A stretch of 23,035 bases of DNA from a virus. The position numbers were made by a program, and so were the translations under genes. The notes under the pieces are model-generated. The model made no database searches. It was not told where the DNA came from and saw nothing but the letters and a program-made list of their open reading frames with translations. The stretch lies in the IMG/VR virus record IMGVR_UViG_3300005529_000101, positions 1 to 23,035 of that record. One strand, given 5' to 3'. Positions 4,021 through 14,972 of this stretch are shown here, one piece after another (the stretch's first letter is position 1; every line of letters starts with the position of its first letter).

Positions 4021-4328
4021 GCGGGACGAATCCAGCCATCGAAGTTCGCCACGCGCAGCTCGAAGGCGGCAAGACCGAGTTCGATGAAATCGTCGTCGCG
4101 TCGCATGGTCCGATCGAATCCGTCCATCTCGAAAAGATGGGCGCGAATCAGTTCTGCCTGATTATCGAAACACGGCGTGAACGAGCGTGTTTCTTCATCG
4201 GCGCGAAGCGGGCGCCGGTCGACGCATGGGAATCGTGGCGCGAAGCGAAGAACAACCGGTCTGACGGGCAAAAGCAGCGCTGGGCGCGCACGCCGCCGGA
4301 ACAGCGACGACGTCGGAGGCGGCGATGA
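4017..4328 (+). CDS. Hypothetical phage protein with Arg-rich C-terminus
   Basis: The product is 103 residues from a GTG start that overlaps the previous stop (GTGA). The middle reads V-H-L-E-K-M-G-A-N-Q-F-C-L-I-I-E and then A-C-F-F-I-G-A-K-R, an alternating strand pattern typical of a small beta domain. The end is a run of arginines (R-R-R-R-R-R-R) that probably binds nucleic acid, although the last codons overlap the next gene and may simply reflect that constraint. I do not recognise a named family. Confidence 0.6.
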   Translation: MSGTNPAIEVRHAQLEGGKTEFDEIVVASHGPIESVHLEKMGANQFCLIIETRRERACFFIGAKRAPVDAWESWREAKNNRSDGQKQRWARTPPEQRRRRRRR

Positions 4329-4834
4329 AAGCGATCAGCCTGTGGCAACCGTGGGCGTCGCTGATGGCGATCGGTGCGAAGGTGATCGAGACGCGCAGCT
4401 GGTGTCCGCCGGCGGAATTGAACGGACACGATCTGGCGATTCACGCCGCGCTGCACTTCACCCGCGAAGAGCAAGACCTGTGCTTCGAAGAACCCTTTCG
4501 CACGGTGCTGACCGAGGCGGGTCTCATCGAGCCGAAGCGCCACACGCTGCCGCCGACGCAGTTCAAGCTGCCGCTCGGCGCGATCGTGTGCGTCGTGCGG
4601 TTCGACCGTGCCATGCCGACCGAGTACATCACCAAACAAACGGACGGGCCGTTCTATCTCTCCGGTCGCGAAGAAGCGTTCGGTAACTACGGACCGCAGC
4701 GCTTCGGCCTGAAAACATCGAACCTGCGTCGGCTGCTCGAGCCGGTGCCGTGTCGAGGCTTCCAGAAGATCTGGAACCTGGATGACGACGTCGCGCAGCA
4801 GGTGCTGTCGCAACTCGCGGCGGTGTCGCGGTGA
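4325..4834 (+). CDS. ASCH-domain protein
   Basis: The 169-residue product begins M-K-A-I-S-L-W-Q-P-W-A-S-L-M and continues G-A-K-V-I-E-T-R-S-W, the standard ASCH (PUA-like) opening with G-x-K-x-x-E-x-R. Later it has L-A-I-H-A-A-L-H-F and P-L-G-A-I-V-C-V-V-R-F, the strands of the barrel, and ends P-C-R-G-F-Q-K-I-W. ASCH domains bind RNA or modified nucleosides, and some have amidohydrolase or ribonuclease activity. Stand-alone versions of this length are frequent in phages. It lies directly before the repeat protein and the adenine methyltransferase, which hints at nucleic-acid modification, but that is inference. Start ATG 4325 overlaps the upstream stop. Confidence 0.85.
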   Translation: MKAISLWQPWASLMAIGAKVIETRSWCPPAELNGHDLAIHAALHFTREEQDLCFEEPFRTVLTEAGLIEPKRHTLPPTQFKLPLGAIVCVVRFDRAMPTEYITKQTDGPFYLSGREEAFGNYGPQRFGLKTSNLRRLLEPVPCRGFQKIWNLDDDVAQQVLSQLAAVSR

Positions 4835-5025
4835 CCATCGAAACGCTGCCGATGGCCGACGCGATGACGCGCGCCTGCGACGTGCTGAAGGATCTCAAGC
4901 TCCAGCCGACTGAAGACCGCGTCCTGATCGTCGGTCGCGCGCTGAAGCGCATGCACGACGCCGGTCGGCAGTCCATGTATCGCACCGTCGCAAAGAAGCT
5001 CGATCTGAAGGTGGCGGGCGACTGA
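4831..5025 (+). CDS. Small helical hypothetical protein
   Basis: The product is 64 residues from a GTG start that overlaps the ASCH gene's stop (GTGA). It looks all-helical: an N-terminal helix around A-M-T-R-A-C-D-V-L-K-D-L and a second around R-A-L-K-R-M-H-D-A, with a basic C-terminus. No motif is recognised. Its stop overlaps the next ATG in TGATG. The tight overlaps on both sides are the main evidence that it is translated. Confidence 0.55.
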   Translation: MTIETLPMADAMTRACDVLKDLKLQPTEDRVLIVGRALKRMHDAGRQSMYRTVAKKLDLKVAGD

Positions 5026-6548
5026 TGGCCATGACGCTGCGCGAGCGTGTTGACGCGTTCAAGGCCGCGTTTCCGAAACGCGACGCATCGTGGCCGTGGG
5101 TCGTGCGCGAGCAGGGACGAGACGTTCTCTACGCCGTCTGGGTCATCGGCAACGACTACCGCAATCGAACGGCGCTGTACGGCGCCTATCCGCCCGGATT
5201 CCTCGAGCGAGTCATTGCGCTGTTCGGCGATGCCGGCGAAGCCGTGCTGCACGCGTTCAGCGGGTCGCTGCCGCCGGGACCGTACAGCCGCGTCGATCTC
5301 GTCGATCGCTGCAAAGTGCCGGACCTGCATTTTCGGCTCGAGCCGGACACAGAGTGGTATCGGACCGCGCTCGGCGTGCAGCGGTGGACCGACACCGCGA
5401 ACACGATCACGAGCCGATCGGGACCAACGAACGGCACGCATGCCGTCGCCGACCCGCGCAGCGGCTACACCGGTGAGTATCAGCAGATCGGCGTCCGTCG
5501 CTGGGAAGAACCAACCGGCGTCGTCAGTGGCCAGATGCAAGTCGGTGGCGGTCCGCATGCGGTGGCTGACCCTCGATACGAAGCGTTCGGCGAGCACTAC
5601 GGCAAGATGCGCGTTGAGCGGTTCGACGAACCGGCGCATGTCGTCACCGGCAGCGATCGCGTCGGATCTGGCGCGCTGTCGATCGCTGATCCTCGGCCGC
5701 AGCTCGACGCCGATCGCGGCGCTCTCGGTGTCATCAAGTTCGACGAGACGGCTGGCACCATCATCGGCGTGCGCGCGCCAGGTCAGGGGAAGTACTCGGT
5801 AGCCGATCCACGGCTATCAGACAAGCCTCGGTTCAGCAGCGTCTACCGGATTGTGCCGTGGGACGAGACCGGAAAGGCCATCACTGGTAACGGCGGACCT
5901 GCGATGGGTGTCGCAGTTGCCGATCCTCGCACTAGCTTCGGTCCAGCGACGCACAACAACATCCTGCATGTCACGCCGTTCAATGGATCGTCCAAAACGA
6001 TCAGCTGCGGTGATCATCCTTCTGGAGGCGCGCTCTGTGTTGCCGATCCTCGGCCGCTGTACGCGCGCGACGGAAAGGACGTCTACAAGACGAGCGGCGA
6101 ATATGGCGTCGTGCCGTTCGACGCGTCGAGCGGCGCCGTCACCGCGCACGCGGGACACGATAACGGCCGCTGGTCAGTCGCCGATCCGCGCGAGTGCGTA
6201 GGGCAGGCCTTTAGTCCTGCGCTGCCGAAAGCCAACGATCGTCTCGTCGCGGTCATTCGCGCGCTCGACGGCACGTATCACCGACCGTTCACCACGTTGG
6301 AGCTCGCCGCGCTGCAAAGCCTCGTCGACGCGGACGAAATCCTCGAGCTATACGGTTCGTCAGATTCCGCGTGGCGCGAACGCATCGGCAACGCCGTGCC
6401 GCCAGACGCCGCGGAAGCGATTGCGTCCGTCATGGCGCAGACGCTCTTGCTCGCGTGGGCGGGTGAGACGTTCCAGCTGAGCGCGACGCCGGTCTGGGTG
6501 CGTCCGGTCGCGATCGCCATCAGCGTGAAATCCGAGGCGTTCGCGTGA
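5025..6548 (+). CDS. Methyltransferase-like protein with seven tandem about 40-residue ADPR repeats
   Basis: The 507-residue product has three parts. Residues 1-111 include L-Y-G-A-Y-P-P-G-F-L and A-V-L-H-A-F-S-G-S-L-P-P-G (residues 73-85), like the SAM-binding motif I region of phage DNA methyltransferases. Residues about 112-389 are seven diverged repeats. Each has an aromatic-acidic core such as P-W-D-E-T or R-F-D-E-P, a T/V-V/I-T-G turn, a glycine-rich stretch, and the ending A-D-P-R at residues 142-145, 181-184, 221-224, 260-263, 299-302, 340-343 and 386-389. Residues 405-465 (H-R-P-F-T-T-L-E-L-A-A-L-Q-S-L, then R-E-R-I-G-N-A-V-P-P) match motifs IX-X of C5-cytosine methyltransferases. 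No Pro-Cys catalytic motif, no E-N-V motif and no D/N-P-P-(Y/W) motif is present, so catalysis is doubtful. ATG 5025 overlaps the upstream stop; an in-frame ATG at 5031 is an alternative start. Confidence 0.8.
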   Translation: MAMTLRERVDAFKAAFPKRDASWPWVVREQGRDVLYAVWVIGNDYRNRTALYGAYPPGFLERVIALFGDAGEAVLHAFSGSLPPGPYSRVDLVDRCKVPDLHFRLEPDTEWYRTALGVQRWTDTANTITSRSGPTNGTHAVADPRSGYTGEYQQIGVRRWEEPTGVVSGQMQVGGGPHAVADPRYEAFGEHYGKMRVERFDEPAHVVTGSDRVGSGALSIADPRPQLDADRGALGVIKFDETAGTIIGVRAPGQGKYSVADPRLSDKPRFSSVYRIVPWDETGKAITGNGGPAMGVAVADPRTSFGPATHNNILHVTPFNGSSKTISCGDHPSGGALCVADPRPLYARDGKDVYKTSGEYGVVPFDASSGAVTAHAGHDNGRWSVADPRECVGQAFSPALPKANDRLVAVIRALDGTYHRPFTTLELAALQSLVDADEILELYGSSDSAWRERIGNAVPPDAAEAIASVMAQTLLLAWAGETFQLSATPVWVRPVAIAISVKSEAFA

Positions 6549-7108
6549 CAGTTCAGACGGCGCTGTTCACCGCAGTCGAGCCGCCGGCGCGCGCCGGCGA
6601 GTATCAGACGATCATCGCGGATCCACCGTGGCAGGAACGCGGCGGCGGTCTCATCAGACGCGGTGCGAACCGGCACTACGACCTGATGTCGACGGAAGAC
6701 ATCGCCGGGTTACCGGTGCCGAAGTGGGCGGCCGCCAACGCGCATCTCTATCTCTGGGTCACGAATAACTTTCTCGAGGACGGTCTATTCGTGATGAAGG
6801 CGTGGTCGTTCCGTTACGTGACGACCATCACGTGGATGAAAGACCGCTTCGGGATCGGCCAGTACTTTCGCGGCATCACCGAGCACTGTCTGTTCGGCGT
6901 GCGCGGGCAGCTGCCGTATCGCACGCGGCCTGACGGTTCGCGCGCGCAGGGCGTCACCGGTTTCATCGCGCCGCGCACTGAACATTCCGTCAAACCGCCT
7001 GACCTGCGTCGCATGGCTGAACTCGTAAGTCCTGAACCGCGGCTCGAGATGTTCGCGCGCCAGCACGTCAACGGCTGGGACGCGTGGGGCAATGAGGTTG
7101 GAGCGTGA
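6545..7108 (+). CDS. MT-A70 family N6-adenine DNA methyltransferase
   Basis: The 187-residue product has the catalytic D-P-P-W at residues 26-29 (I-I-A-D-P-P-W-Q), followed by H-Y-D-L-M-S, A-H-L-Y-L-W-V-T-N, T-I-T-W-M-K and E-H-C-L-F-G-V-R-G. It ends with E-M-F-A-R and G-W-D-A-W-G-N-E. This is the complete short MT-A70 layout seen in phages and bacteria, which transfers a methyl group from SAM to adenine N6. A likely role is marking phage DNA against host restriction or regulating phage genes; the target site cannot be read from sequence. The GTG at 6545 overlaps the stop of the repeat protein (GTGA), so the two are probably translated together. Confidence 0.92.
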   Translation: MTVQTALFTAVEPPARAGEYQTIIADPPWQERGGGLIRRGANRHYDLMSTEDIAGLPVPKWAAANAHLYLWVTNNFLEDGLFVMKAWSFRYVTTITWMKDRFGIGQYFRGITEHCLFGVRGQLPYRTRPDGSRAQGVTGFIAPRTEHSVKPPDLRRMAELVSPEPRLEMFARQHVNGWDAWGNEVGA

Positions 7109-7515
7109 CGAACCGAACCGAATATATGCGCGAGTACGAAGCGAAGCGCCGAGAGCGATGTCGGCGATCAGGCATCTGCGTGCACTGTGGAACAGCGCGT
7201 CGGCGCAAAGGCGTCGCGCCGAACGGTCAACCGTACACGAGATGCCGGCGGTGCATCGACCGTCTCGCTCGCTTCAACTCCCGCTACTTCCGGCAGCGCC
7301 GACGCGCTGGAGTGTGTCGTAGCTGCCCACGTCGGCTCGTGCGAGGCGACAAGCGCACCGAGTGTCGTCTGTGTCGTCGGCGACGAAGCGCACGCAGCCG
7401 CGAGCGCTACGCGCGCGCAGCACGTCAGCAGGGGACAGGGTGCCATAGGTTCTTCCGGGCATCGGCCAATGCGGGGAAACGCACCGCACAAAGTGAGCAG
7501 GCACCACGTCCGTGA
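7105..7515 (+). CDS. Basic double zinc-ribbon protein
   Basis: The 136-residue product has four cysteine pairs: C-V-H-C (about residue 25), C-R-R-C (about 47), C-R-S-C (about 71) and C-R-L-C (about 87). They form two consecutive zinc ribbons, each followed by an Arg-rich helix (R-F-N-S-R-Y-F-R and R-S-R-E-R-Y-A-R). Two tandem copies of one module are likely. The last 30 residues lack a pattern. The GTG start overlaps the methyltransferase stop (GTGA). It is the last gene before the GGTGGTC array and the terminase genes. Its basic charge and zinc sites suggest nucleic-acid binding, perhaps regulation of the late genes, but that is a guess. Confidence 0.6.
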   Translation: MTNRTEYMREYEAKRRERCRRSGICVHCGTARRRKGVAPNGQPYTRCRRCIDRLARFNSRYFRQRRRAGVCRSCPRRLVRGDKRTECRLCRRRRSARSRERYARAARQQGTGCHRFFRASANAGKRTAQSEQAPRP

Positions 7516-12457: not shown

Positions 12458-13099
12458 GTGCACGAGCGTCATGATCTTTTCGGACGGTCGGTCGAAATTC
12501 CGATTCTGTGGCGTGCCGCCACGATCGACAGCGTCAACGAGCAAGAACGAACCGTTGATGTGATCTTCTCCACCGGTGCCGATGTCCTGCGGCGCACCCT
12601 CTTCACCGGACCGTGGATCGAACGATTGGCGATGGACCCGCGGTCGGTGCGCTTGGGTCGCTACAACGCTGGCGCGCCGCTGCTCGATGGTCACGTGGGC
12701 GATTCGGTTCGGAGCGATCAAGTCGGCGCAGTCGTGCCAGGGACCGCCCGGATTGACAACGGCCGCGGCATTGCGCGCATCAAGTTCTCGCGCCGCCCTG
12801 ACGCCGAAGCGATCTTCCAGGACGTCAAGGACGGGATCGTCCGCAGCGTCAGTCCCGGCTACCGCGTCCACAAGTTCCAGGAGCAAGCGGCGACGGCGGC
12901 GACGCCGGTGATTCGCACCGCGGTCGACTGGGAACCGTACGAACTGTCGCTCGTCCCGATGGGCGCTGACCCTGGCGCGCAAATGCGCAGCGCTAGCGGC
13001 GACACGTTGAACCTTTGCTATATCGAACGATCAGCCGACATCGTCGTTGATGACGCCGATCGTCTCCGGTTGTTGACACTCGAACTGGCGCGTCTCTAA
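12458..13099 (+). CDS. Prohead protease, S78 (HK97) type
   Basis: The 213-residue product has the S78 pattern: early strands (V-D-V-I-F-S-T-G), the catalytic His in L-L-D-G-H-V-G-D (His79), the Ser in V-R-S-V-S-P-G-Y (Ser132), and the acidic residue in W-E-P-Y-E-L-S-L-V-P-M-G-A-D (about Glu162). The enzyme clips the capsid delta domain during head maturation. The GTG at 12458 is the first possible start because an in-frame TGA ends just before it (12452-12454). I see no clear ribosome-binding site, so initiation here is odd. The 48 bp between the previous gene and this start are noticeably AT-rich. The C-terminal 40 residues are not conserved. Confidence 0.9.
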   Translation: MHERHDLFGRSVEIPILWRAATIDSVNEQERTVDVIFSTGADVLRRTLFTGPWIERLAMDPRSVRLGRYNAGAPLLDGHVGDSVRSDQVGAVVPGTARIDNGRGIARIKFSRRPDAEAIFQDVKDGIVRSVSPGYRVHKFQEQAATAATPVIRTAVDWEPYELSLVPMGADPGAQMRSASGDTLNLCYIERSADIVVDDADRLRLLTLELARL

Positions 13100-13109
13100 C
13101 GAGGAGCAC

Positions 13110-14972
13110 ATGAATACGCATCTCTCTGTCCTGTCCTTCTTCGTCGCATTCGTCGTGGGTCTCGCGGCGATGCCGACCAACGTCTTCAAGGTCTGTGCGT
13201 GGAACGTCGGCACGGCAGAACTCGATCCGTGGCGCATTCGCACGATGAGTGCGATTCGTCAGGCCGGGCAAACCATCAGAGCATGGCTCGCGTCGTTGTG
13301 GTCGCCGCGGATCGCGCTGGCATGCCTCGCGGTGATCATCGCGCTGCTCGCAGCGCAGCATGCAGCGCATGGCGCCGTCCTGCTGGCCGCCACACCGCTC
13401 GCGACGCTGAAGACGAAGAAAGAAGATCTCGTCCGCGCGGCACAGGCGCTCTGTAAGGACGGCAAGTTCGCCGACCAGGCCGCACGCGACGCGTTCGACG
13501 CCAAGATGGCCGAGGCGCGCGGGCTCGATGAAGAGATTCGCGCGATGGAAGCGGCCGGCGACAACAAGCCGCTCACCGATGCCGACCTGGATGCCGCACG
13601 GAAAGCCGGCGCTGACTCCGAGCGCTGTCGCATCAAGGGCATTCGTGATGCGGTTCGTATCGCCAAGCTCGAGACCGTGACCGCTGACAAGATGATCGAG
13701 CGCGGCATCGCGATCGAAGCGGCTCGCGCGGAGATCTTCGCCGAGCTCGAGAAGAATGACCGCAAGGATCCCACGGATCCGCACATTCAGGCTGGCGCTG
13801 ACGCGCAGGACAAGTTCATGCGCGGCGCGACGAATTGGCTGCTGATGAAGGGCGGTCAGGCGACGCTGGTGCGCGGCGCCGTGGAGTCGATGAAGAAACG
13901 CGGCATCGCGGTCGCTGATGTCGAAGGCGATATCGACCCTGGCGAATTCCGCGGACTGACGCTGCTCGACCTCGCGCGGATGTGCCTCGAGCGCGCCGGT
14001 CGCAGCGTCCGCGGCATGAACAAGATGGACCTCGTCGCCCAGGCATTCCTCGTGCGCGGCCAGATCACCCAGTCGACCAGCGACTTCGCGGTGCTGCTCG
14101 AAAACACGATGAACAAGGTCCTCCAGGCGGCGTACGCGACGACGCCGGATACGTGGCGCCGGTTCTGTGCGGAAAGCACGGTCACCGACTTCCGTGCCGC
14201 GAACCGGTATCGCATGGGGAACTTCGGCGCGCTCGACTCGCTGAATGAAAACGGCGAGTTCAAGAACAAGGCGATTCAGGACGCAGAGAAGGCGACCATC
14301 ACCGCGTCAACGAAGGGCAACATCATCAACGTCTCGCGGCAGATGATCGTCAACGACGACCTGAACGCGTTCAGCCGCCTGCCGATGATGCTCGGCCGTG
14401 CGGCCGCGCTGTCGATCGAGACGGACGTCTACGCGCTGCTCGGACAGAACAGCGGTCTCGGCCCGACCCAGAGCGACACGCATCCGCTGTTCTACGACGC
14501 CACGCGGTCGAACGTCAGCACCGGTGCGGCGCTCTCGGCGGCCGCGATCGATGCCGACCGCGTGAAGTTGGGCAGCCAGAAGGATCCGTGGGGCAACGAG
14601 TATCTCGACCTGCGTCCGGCGGTGCTCTTGGTCCCGCTTAGCCTCGGTGGACAGGCGCGCGTCATCAACAACTCGCAGTACGACCCTGACAACCTGGCTA
14701 GCGGCAGCAAGGCGCAGCAGATCCCGAACAAGGTGGTCGGGCTGTTCCGCGATGTCATCGACACGCCGCGACTCACCGGCACGCGCCGCTACATCTTCGC
14801 GGATCCGGGCATCGCGCCGGTCTTCGAAGTGGCGTTCCTCGAAGGGCAGACGGCGCCGGTGCTCGAGTCGCAGGACGGCTGGCGCGTGGACGGCGCGGAG
14901 ATGAAAGCTCGAATCGACTACGGCGTCGCGGCGGTCGACTACCGCGGCGCGGTGACCAACGCCGGCGCGTAG
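13110..14972 (+). CDS. Major capsid protein (HK97 fold) with hydrophobic N-terminal extension
   Basis: GAGGAG at 13101-13106 supports the ATG at 13110; an in-frame ATG at 13245 is an alternative. The first 95 residues contain two hydrophobic stretches: about residues 5-20 (L-S-V-L-S-F-F-V-A-F-V-V-G-L-A-A) and about 68-94 (L-A-C-L-A-V-I-I-A-L-L-A-A). These are unusual for a capsid protein. Residues about 100-230 are Lys/Glu/Ala-rich coiled-coil-like sequence, as expected of a delta or scaffold domain, with no separate scaffold gene nearby. From about residue 240 on the sequence fits capsid proteins of this gene order: D-F-A-V-L-L-E-N-T-M-N-K, then F-G-A-L-D-S-L-N-E-N-G-E-F-K-N, then Y-I-F-A-D-P-G-I-A-P-V-F-E-V-A-F-L-E-G. 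Assignment rests on these motifs, length and position after the protease. Confidence 0.85.
   Translation: MNTHLSVLSFFVAFVVGLAAMPTNVFKVCAWNVGTAELDPWRIRTMSAIRQAGQTIRAWLASLWSPRIALACLAVIIALLAAQHAAHGAVLLAATPLATLKTKKEDLVRAAQALCKDGKFADQAARDAFDAKMAEARGLDEEIRAMEAAGDNKPLTDADLDAARKAGADSERCRIKGIRDAVRIAKLETVTADKMIERGIAIEAARAEIFAELEKNDRKDPTDPHIQAGADAQDKFMRGATNWLLMKGGQATLVRGAVESMKKRGIAVADVEGDIDPGEFRGLTLLDLARMCLERAGRSVRGMNKMDLVAQAFLVRGQITQSTSDFAVLLENTMNKVLQAAYATTPDTWRRFCAESTVTDFRAANRYRMGNFGALDSLNENGEFKNKAIQDAEKATITASTKGNIINVSRQMIVNDDLNAFSRLPMMLGRAAALSIETDVYALLGQNSGLGPTQSDTHPLFYDATRSNVSTGAALSAAAIDADRVKLGSQKDPWGNEYLDLRPAVLLVPLSLGGQARVINNSQYDPDNLASGSKAQQIPNKVVGLFRDVIDTPRLTGTRRYIFADPGIAPVFEVAFLEGQTAPVLESQDGWRVDGAEMKARIDYGVAAVDYRGAVTNAGA

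What the first reader, a model, noticed from the sequence alone, without database searches (positions are those of the whole stretch)
5025..6548. Seven tandem ADPR-ended repeats inside a methyltransferase-like protein that lacks catalytic motifs
Seen: seven diverged units of 39-46 residues, each with an aromatic/acidic core, a V/I-T-G turn and an ADPR end, in the order residues 112-389. They are bounded by an F-S-G-S motif I-like stretch before and by motif IX-X-like sequence (T-L-E-L-A-A-L-Q-S, R-E-R-I-G-N-A-V-P-P) after. No Pro-Cys, E-N-V or D/N-P-P-(Y/W) motif exists, so neither a C5 nor an N6/N4 catalytic site is visible. Known: in C5 methyltransferases the segment before motif IX contains a D-x-P-x-x-T-V/I-T motif much like one repeat unit. 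Inference: that segment was multiplied while the catalytic half was lost or replaced, giving a DNA-binding scaffold, a decoy, or a partner that directs the adjacent MT-A70 enzyme.
Basis: partly seen in the sequence, partly recalled or inferred. Interest (0 to 1): 0.85.

Follow-up and report, generated by a model that had tools for sequence, protein, structure and literature searches.

The report
Chimeric phage methyltransferase gene lacking catalysis
A phage gene joins the front of one DNA-methylating enzyme to the DNA-recognition tail of another, so it keeps seven tandem recognition-type repeats but neither enzyme's active site; it is probably a recombination leftover, though its break lies close to where naturally two-part enzymes of this class are divided.

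Summary
The 507-residue ORF at 5025-6548 has seven repeats of one family and no C5 or amino-methyltransferase catalytic motif. The repeats are not peculiar to this protein. They are the repeat array of a C5-methyltransferase family found in Pseudomonas, Burkholderia, Roseomonas and other phages, prophages and plasmids. There the array lies between motifs VIII and IX of a catalytic domain; 84 of 87 other members read here keep the catalytic Pro-Cys and Glu-Asn-Val-Pro motifs in the same frame, with 2-8 repeats in about 40 arrangements. Multiplication of the segment and loss of catalysis are therefore separate events. The front of the window protein (residues 1-92) is not from that family. It is the first half of a small, unrelated amino-methyltransferase (phrog_3816), intact in one other phage contig, where the same zinc-ribbon gene lies just downstream. 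So the gene is a chimera: the 3' part of a C5 gene plus an MT-A70 gene sit where the 3' half of a phrog_3816 gene would be. Most likely it is a recombination product that cannot methylate alone. The break falls between motif VIII and the repeats, so a split-enzyme subunit remains possible. The MT-A70 partnership is not conserved. Assembly error is unlikely but not excluded.

The parts
5025..5300 (+). N-terminal segment (residues 1-92): first half of a phrog_3816-type small DNA methyltransferase, with its motif-I-like LHAFSGS but without its DPPY part
   Evidence: 66% identity over residues 3-92 to the intact 202-aa protein at L010:5001-5609, which carries ADPPYS; phrog_3816 E=1.6e-13, profile positions 30-92 of 203; the missing half is not elsewhere in the window
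5295..5325 (+). Fusion junction, about residues 91-100; the DNA carries a short repeat CGTCGATCtCGTCGATC
   Evidence: L010 similarity ends at residue 92; best match to an intact C5 relative (L019) starts at residue 92 and many plasmid matches start at 93; DNA alignment breaks down here
5301..6548 (+). C-terminal part (residues 93-507): repeat array plus motifs IX-X of a C5 cytosine methyltransferase, without motifs I-VIII
   Evidence: 45-56% identity to phage, prophage and plasmid C5 methyltransferases; tail HMM 494 bits
5361..5459 (+). repeat unit 1 (residues 113-145)
   Evidence: unit HMM
5475..5576 (+). repeat unit 2 (residues 151-184)
   Evidence: unit HMM
5592..5696 (+). repeat unit 3 (residues 190-224)
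   Evidence: unit HMM
5709..5813 (+). repeat unit 4 (residues 229-263)
   Evidence: unit HMM
5835..5930 (+). repeat unit 5 (residues 271-302)
   Evidence: unit HMM
5949..6053 (+). repeat unit 6 (residues 309-343)
   Evidence: unit HMM
6084..6191 (+). repeat unit 7 (residues 354-389), the terminal unit type B, shared by nearly all family members
   Evidence: unit HMM and clustering
6279..6422 (+). C5 motif IX (HRPFTTLELAALQS) and motif X (RERIGNAVPPDAAEAI)
   Evidence: Pfam PF00145 positions 270-322, sub-threshold; conserved in the family
6545..7108 (+). MT-A70 (N6-adenine) methyltransferase, apparently intact, with ADPPW; start overlaps the stop of the chimera
   Evidence: PF05063 E=1.4e-27 over profile 1-172 of 172
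7105..7515 (+). Cys-rich (zinc-ribbon-like) protein that in L010 is the next gene after the intact phrog_3816 gene
   Evidence: 53% identity to L010:5779-5988; order kept in the 30.9-kb contig
4831..5025 (+). 64-aa ORF just upstream, its last base shared with the start codon of the chimera; no known family

Best explanation
The ORF is a chimeric gene made by illegitimate recombination in a mosaic tailed phage. The 3' half of a phrog_3816 amino-methyltransferase gene was replaced by a DNA segment holding the 3' part of a repeat-type C5 cytosine methyltransferase gene (repeat array plus motifs IX-X) and a complete MT-A70 gene. Shown: the two origins, the position of the join, the lack of both catalytic centres and the seven repeats. 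Inferred: the product cannot methylate by itself; the repeats are target-recognition-type modules as in the intact relatives; the ORF stays open because the event is recent, because upstream of MT-A70 it keeps translation coupled, or because some DNA binding is retained. The working enzyme of the locus is then the downstream MT-A70 methyltransferase.
For: Residues 3-92 match an intact 202-aa phrog_3816 enzyme that keeps DPPYS, and residues from about 93 match C5 enzymes whose catalytic half is missing here. Intact C5 relatives are the rule: 84 of 87; of 14 strong hits in 399 genomes of one bacterial order, 12 are open frames of 583-676 aa with ENVP (11 of them also PCKG), one is a 157-aa fragment and one was not parsed by the script. 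The intact type folds as a C5 enzyme (confident catalytic half, Foldseek matches M.HaeIII 3ubt and DNMT1). In L010 the order is g590-like gene, phrog_3816 gene, zinc-ribbon gene; the window has the same order with the C5 tail and MT-A70 between the last two. Other disabled members exist: L044 and L067 carry the catalytic motif in another frame, L089 lost the segment from motif I to the repeats, and a Sphingomonas plasmid copy is frame-broken within the repeats.
Against: The C-terminal part is not visibly degraded: 4 of 68 near-invariant positions changed, as in intact members of similar divergence (L002, L009, L034, L015 also 4). The frame is open across the join, codon bias is present in both parts, and the 5' and 3' gene overlaps are tidy. 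A young event or a retained function would also look like this. Only one contig shows the chimera and only one other contig has the N-terminal family at this similarity.
Confidence: 0.6

Rival explanations
1. Split C5 methyltransferase: the chimera is a specificity subunit (repeat array plus motifs IX-X, like the small subunit of M.AquI) that assembles with a catalytic half made elsewhere, in the unsequenced rest of the phage or by a resident prophage or plasmid.
For: The C5 part starts after motif VIII and at the start of the repeat array. Literature: the small subunit of M.AquI holds the distal variable region and motifs IX-X, and separately made C-terminal fragments of M.SssI work best when they begin between motif VIII and the target-recognition domain, even with appended foreign sequence (PMC3404938). 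The tail is well conserved. The window is a 23-kb record of unknown completeness.
Against: No catalytic-half homologue is encoded in the window. No natural split pair was seen among the relatives: they are single frames, or frame-broken with both parts adjacent. About 70 conserved residues between motif VIII and the repeats are also gone.
Confidence: 0.14
2. Repurposed DNA-binding protein: the repeat array binds specific sites and acts as scaffold, decoy or repressor, or guides the neighbouring MT-A70 enzyme.
For: A seven-unit recognition-type array kept in frame without catalysis, directly upstream of and overlapping an intact MT-A70 gene.
Against: The gene pair is not conserved: one MT-A70 homologue near about 87 family loci, upstream. 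No relative consists of the array alone except apparent breakage products. In C5 enzymes the recognition domain packs against the catalytic domain (general knowledge), and the stand-alone model is of very low confidence (pLDDT 40), so autonomous folding is unproven.
Confidence: 0.1
3. Assembly artefact: the contig joins two phage genomes at about 5301.
For: A single metagenomic viral record; no second contig with the join was found. Codon bias is weaker within residues 250-400.
Against: The foreign stretch is flanked on both sides by genes in L010 order, so two separate misjoins within about 2 kb would be needed, both neatly at gene borders or in frame. The join falls in phase, gene overlaps are tidy and G+C at codon position 3 is similar across it (0.80 versus 0.75).
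Confidence: 0.12
4. Active enzyme of a new kind: the phrog_3816 motif-I strand and C5 motif X together bind SAM, and an unrecognised residue catalyses.
For: Motif-I-like FSGS and motif X are both present in one chain.
Against: Neither the C5 catalytic Cys/ENV nor DPPY is present, and two half-domains from different enzymes are joined.
Confidence: 0.02

Closest known systems
Repeat-type C5 cytosine methyltransferases of Pseudomonas phages H66/LKA5, Sinorhizobium phage PBC5, Marinobacter phage PS3, and plasmids (annotated 'DNA cytosine methyltransferase')
   Same: Repeat array with ADPR ends, terminal unit type, motifs IX-X; 45-56% identity over residues 93-507
   Different: The window protein lacks motifs I-VIII and carries a foreign N-terminus
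phrog_3816 small DNA methyltransferases (L010:5001-5609)
   Same: Residues 1-92, position before the zinc-ribbon gene
   Different: The half with DPPYS is missing
Multispecific C5 methyltransferases of Bacillus phages (SPR, SPbeta, phi3T, rho11, H2)
   Same: Tandem modules in the region between motifs VIII and IX of a phage C5 enzyme
   Different: Independent specificity of each unit is untested here; no Bacillus phage record was among the protein matches; no catalytic half in the window protein
M.AquI, two-subunit C5 methyltransferase
   Same: A polypeptide with the distal variable region and motifs IX-X only
   Different: No partner subunit found in the window; foreign N-terminal extension

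Membership tests
C5 cytosine methyltransferase | Motif IV Pro-Cys catalytic site | tested here: not met
   No PC in the translation; catalytic-half HMM has no hit in the six-frame window
C5 cytosine methyltransferase | Motif VI ENV | tested here: not met
C5 cytosine methyltransferase | Motifs IX and X | tested here: met
Repeat-type phage/plasmid C5 family | Tandem ADPR-ended units between motifs VIII and IX | tested here: met
   Seven units before motif IX; motif VIII itself absent
phrog_3816 methyltransferase | Full 203-position profile including the DPPY region | tested here: not met
   Only positions 30-92 matched; remaining half absent from the window
Multispecific (multi-TRD) C5 methyltransferase | Tandem TRD modules in the variable region | tested here: inconclusive
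   Tandem, variable-number units at the right place in relatives; structure of the units not resolved
Multispecific (multi-TRD) C5 methyltransferase | Each module gives its own recognition sequence | not testable with these tools
   Needs methylome or restriction-protection data
Split C5 methyltransferase (M.AquI-like) | Partner polypeptide with motifs I-VIII in the same genome | tested here: inconclusive
   Absent from the 23-kb window; the rest of the phage genome is not available

The most novel reading that the evidence does not exclude
The chimera is a natural stand-alone specificity subunit: a seven-unit recognition array freed from its catalytic domain, which lends target sites to a C5 catalytic half supplied in trans or marks DNA sites without methylating them.
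Probability: 0.15. Interest if true: 0.65.

Novelty: new variant of a known kind. Interest (0 to 1): 0.38.

Why it matters
The single locus is probably a by-product of phage mosaicism. The family behind it is more useful: C5 enzymes of phages, prophages and plasmids with 2-8 recognition-type units in about 40 arrangements, with mostly fixed first and last unit types and a changing middle. If each unit reads its own DNA word, as in the Bacillus phage enzymes, this is a large natural set for testing how methylation specificity is built from short cassettes and used against restriction. The window copy would be a ready test of whether an array works without its catalytic domain.

Tried and rejected
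Structure of the window protein: AlphaFold2 gave pLDDT 40 and is not used. In the full-length relative the repeats are below 50, so no fold can be assigned to them. A PDB search with the unit profile gave one chance hit (VP3, E 0.17). The full-length family profile found no PDB chain by sequence. A search for the missing catalytic half or the missing phrog_3816 half elsewhere in the window was negative. phrog_3816 was not found in 398 genomes of the relevant phylum; a second search with a two-row alignment was also empty but had no positive control. No close relative of the MT-A70 gene was found in the viral contigs. Literature searches found no description of this repeat family, but the library is open-access only. 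The two older papers on multispecific enzymes cited by PMC8936443 are not held.

Full report
What is there. The ORF 5025-6548 encodes 507 aa. Seven units of one repeat family lie at residues 113-389. The test used a unit profile built from other proteins only, and it finds exactly these seven copies and nothing else in the six-frame window. With the ADPR ends removed, 18 of 21 unit pairs still score 2 SD or more above shuffled units. Motif IX (HRPFTTLELAALQS) and motif X (RERIGNAVPP) follow. Neither a C5 nor an amino-methyltransferase active-site motif is present.

Where the repeats come from. Residues about 93-507 match enzymes mostly annotated as DNA cytosine methyltransferases or hypothetical proteins in 36 phage records (mostly Pseudomonas aeruginosa phages, also Sinorhizobium PBC5 and Marinobacter PS3) and 166 plasmid records. 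A scan of viral contigs with the C-terminal region found at least 588 relatives, of which the 80 best were kept. The relatives start with HLFCGLGGGAKGF (motif I), SAPCKGFS (motif IV), FENVPR (motif VI) and QSRKRF (motif VIII), then the repeats, then motifs IX-X. All 34 members scanned match Pfam DNA_methylase. The predicted structure of a full-length member has a confident catalytic half whose best PDB matches are C5 methyltransferases, including M.HaeIII and DNMT1.

How common is loss of catalysis. Of 87 other members read (viral contigs, phages, two bacterial contigs), 84 have Pro-Cys and ENVP in the same frame as the tail. L044 and L067 have the catalytic motif in a different frame, and L089 has lost the part from motif I to the repeats. 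Of 14 strong hits in 399 genomes of one bacterial order, 12 are open frames of 583-676 aa with ENVP (11 of them also PCKG), one is a 157-aa fragment and one was not parsed by the script. A Sphingomonas plasmid copy is frame-broken within the repeats and Novosphingobium carries only a remnant. Loss of catalysis is therefore the exception and looks like breakage where seen.

The array is modular. Units fall into about 26 main types at the cut used. One type (C) opens and one (B) closes the array in most proteins, while the middle varies; 2-8 units and 40 distinct arrangements were counted. Many of the 87 are close relatives, so the count is descriptive. This resembles the tandem recognition domains of multispecific Bacillus phage enzymes, described in PMC8936443. 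That each unit here is a recognition module is inference; no fold could be predicted for the units.

Where the front comes from. Residues 3-92 match, at 66% identity, the first half of a 202-aa protein in one other viral contig (L010:5001-5609), a full-length phrog_3816 methyltransferase with ADPPYS. In the window only positions 30-92 of that 203-position profile are present, and the other half is nowhere in the window. L010 has a g590-like gene upstream and the zinc-ribbon gene right after the phrog_3816 gene. The window has the same order, with the C5 tail and the MT-A70 gene between the last two. A single replacement of the 3' half of the phrog_3816 gene by [C5 3' part + MT-A70] explains the map. 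At the join the DNA reads CGTCGATCtCGTCGATC, a short repeat that may or may not mark the crossover.

Is it decaying. The last repeat and motifs IX-X keep 64 of 68 positions that are at least 95% invariant in the family, the same number of changes as several intact members of similar divergence. Codon bias is present in both parts, weaker in residues 250-400. This fits a young event as well as a maintained function. Without a close relative, dN/dS cannot be computed.

Function. Neither parent active site is left, so methylation by this protein alone is very unlikely. The break, between motif VIII and the repeats, is close to where two-subunit C5 enzymes are divided and where artificial C-terminal fragments complement best (PMC3404938). 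A specificity subunit needing a partner is therefore the most interesting open reading; no partner is in the window, but the record may be incomplete. Guidance of MT-A70 lacks comparative support, because only one of about 87 loci has an MT-A70 homologue nearby.

Verdict. Observation confirmed; interpretation partly supported. A chimeric, catalysis-free gene, probably a recombination product, that draws attention to a real and apparently under-described family of C5 enzymes with shuffled repeat arrays.

Noticed in passing
L009:5059-6294, L097:886-2037: A phosphoadenosine-phosphosulfate-reductase-like (SGGKDS) gene lies directly next to the repeat-type C5 methyltransferase in some phages and plasmids (SGGKDS motif found in 8 of about 97 loci; not always adjacent). 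The pairing is unexplained.
   Followed up: partly
L089:4539-5420: In a contig (IMGVR_UViG_2671180611_000004) a repeat-type C5 gene has an in-frame deletion from motif I to the repeats, leaving an open frame of 294 codons: a second catalysis-free array.
   Followed up: partly
phiCTX records S75107.1 and D13409.1, positions 1-216: The short phiCTX records start with the last 72 codons of this C5 family (68% identity), with no annotated feature under the match.
   Followed up: no
window 4325-4834: Gene matches phrog_3193 (E 3.6e-30, unknown function) and only weakly the ASCH domain (E 0.04).
   Followed up: no
window 13110-14972: The capsid gene matches Phage_capsid_4 only from residue 303; the first 300 residues have no match, and a separate prohead-protease-like ORF (12458-13099) lies just upstream.
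   Followed up: no
window 5775-6224: Codon bias towards the phage's own usage is weaker here (0.10 versus 0.25-0.40 in neighbouring stretches), consistent with imported repeat units.
   Followed up: no
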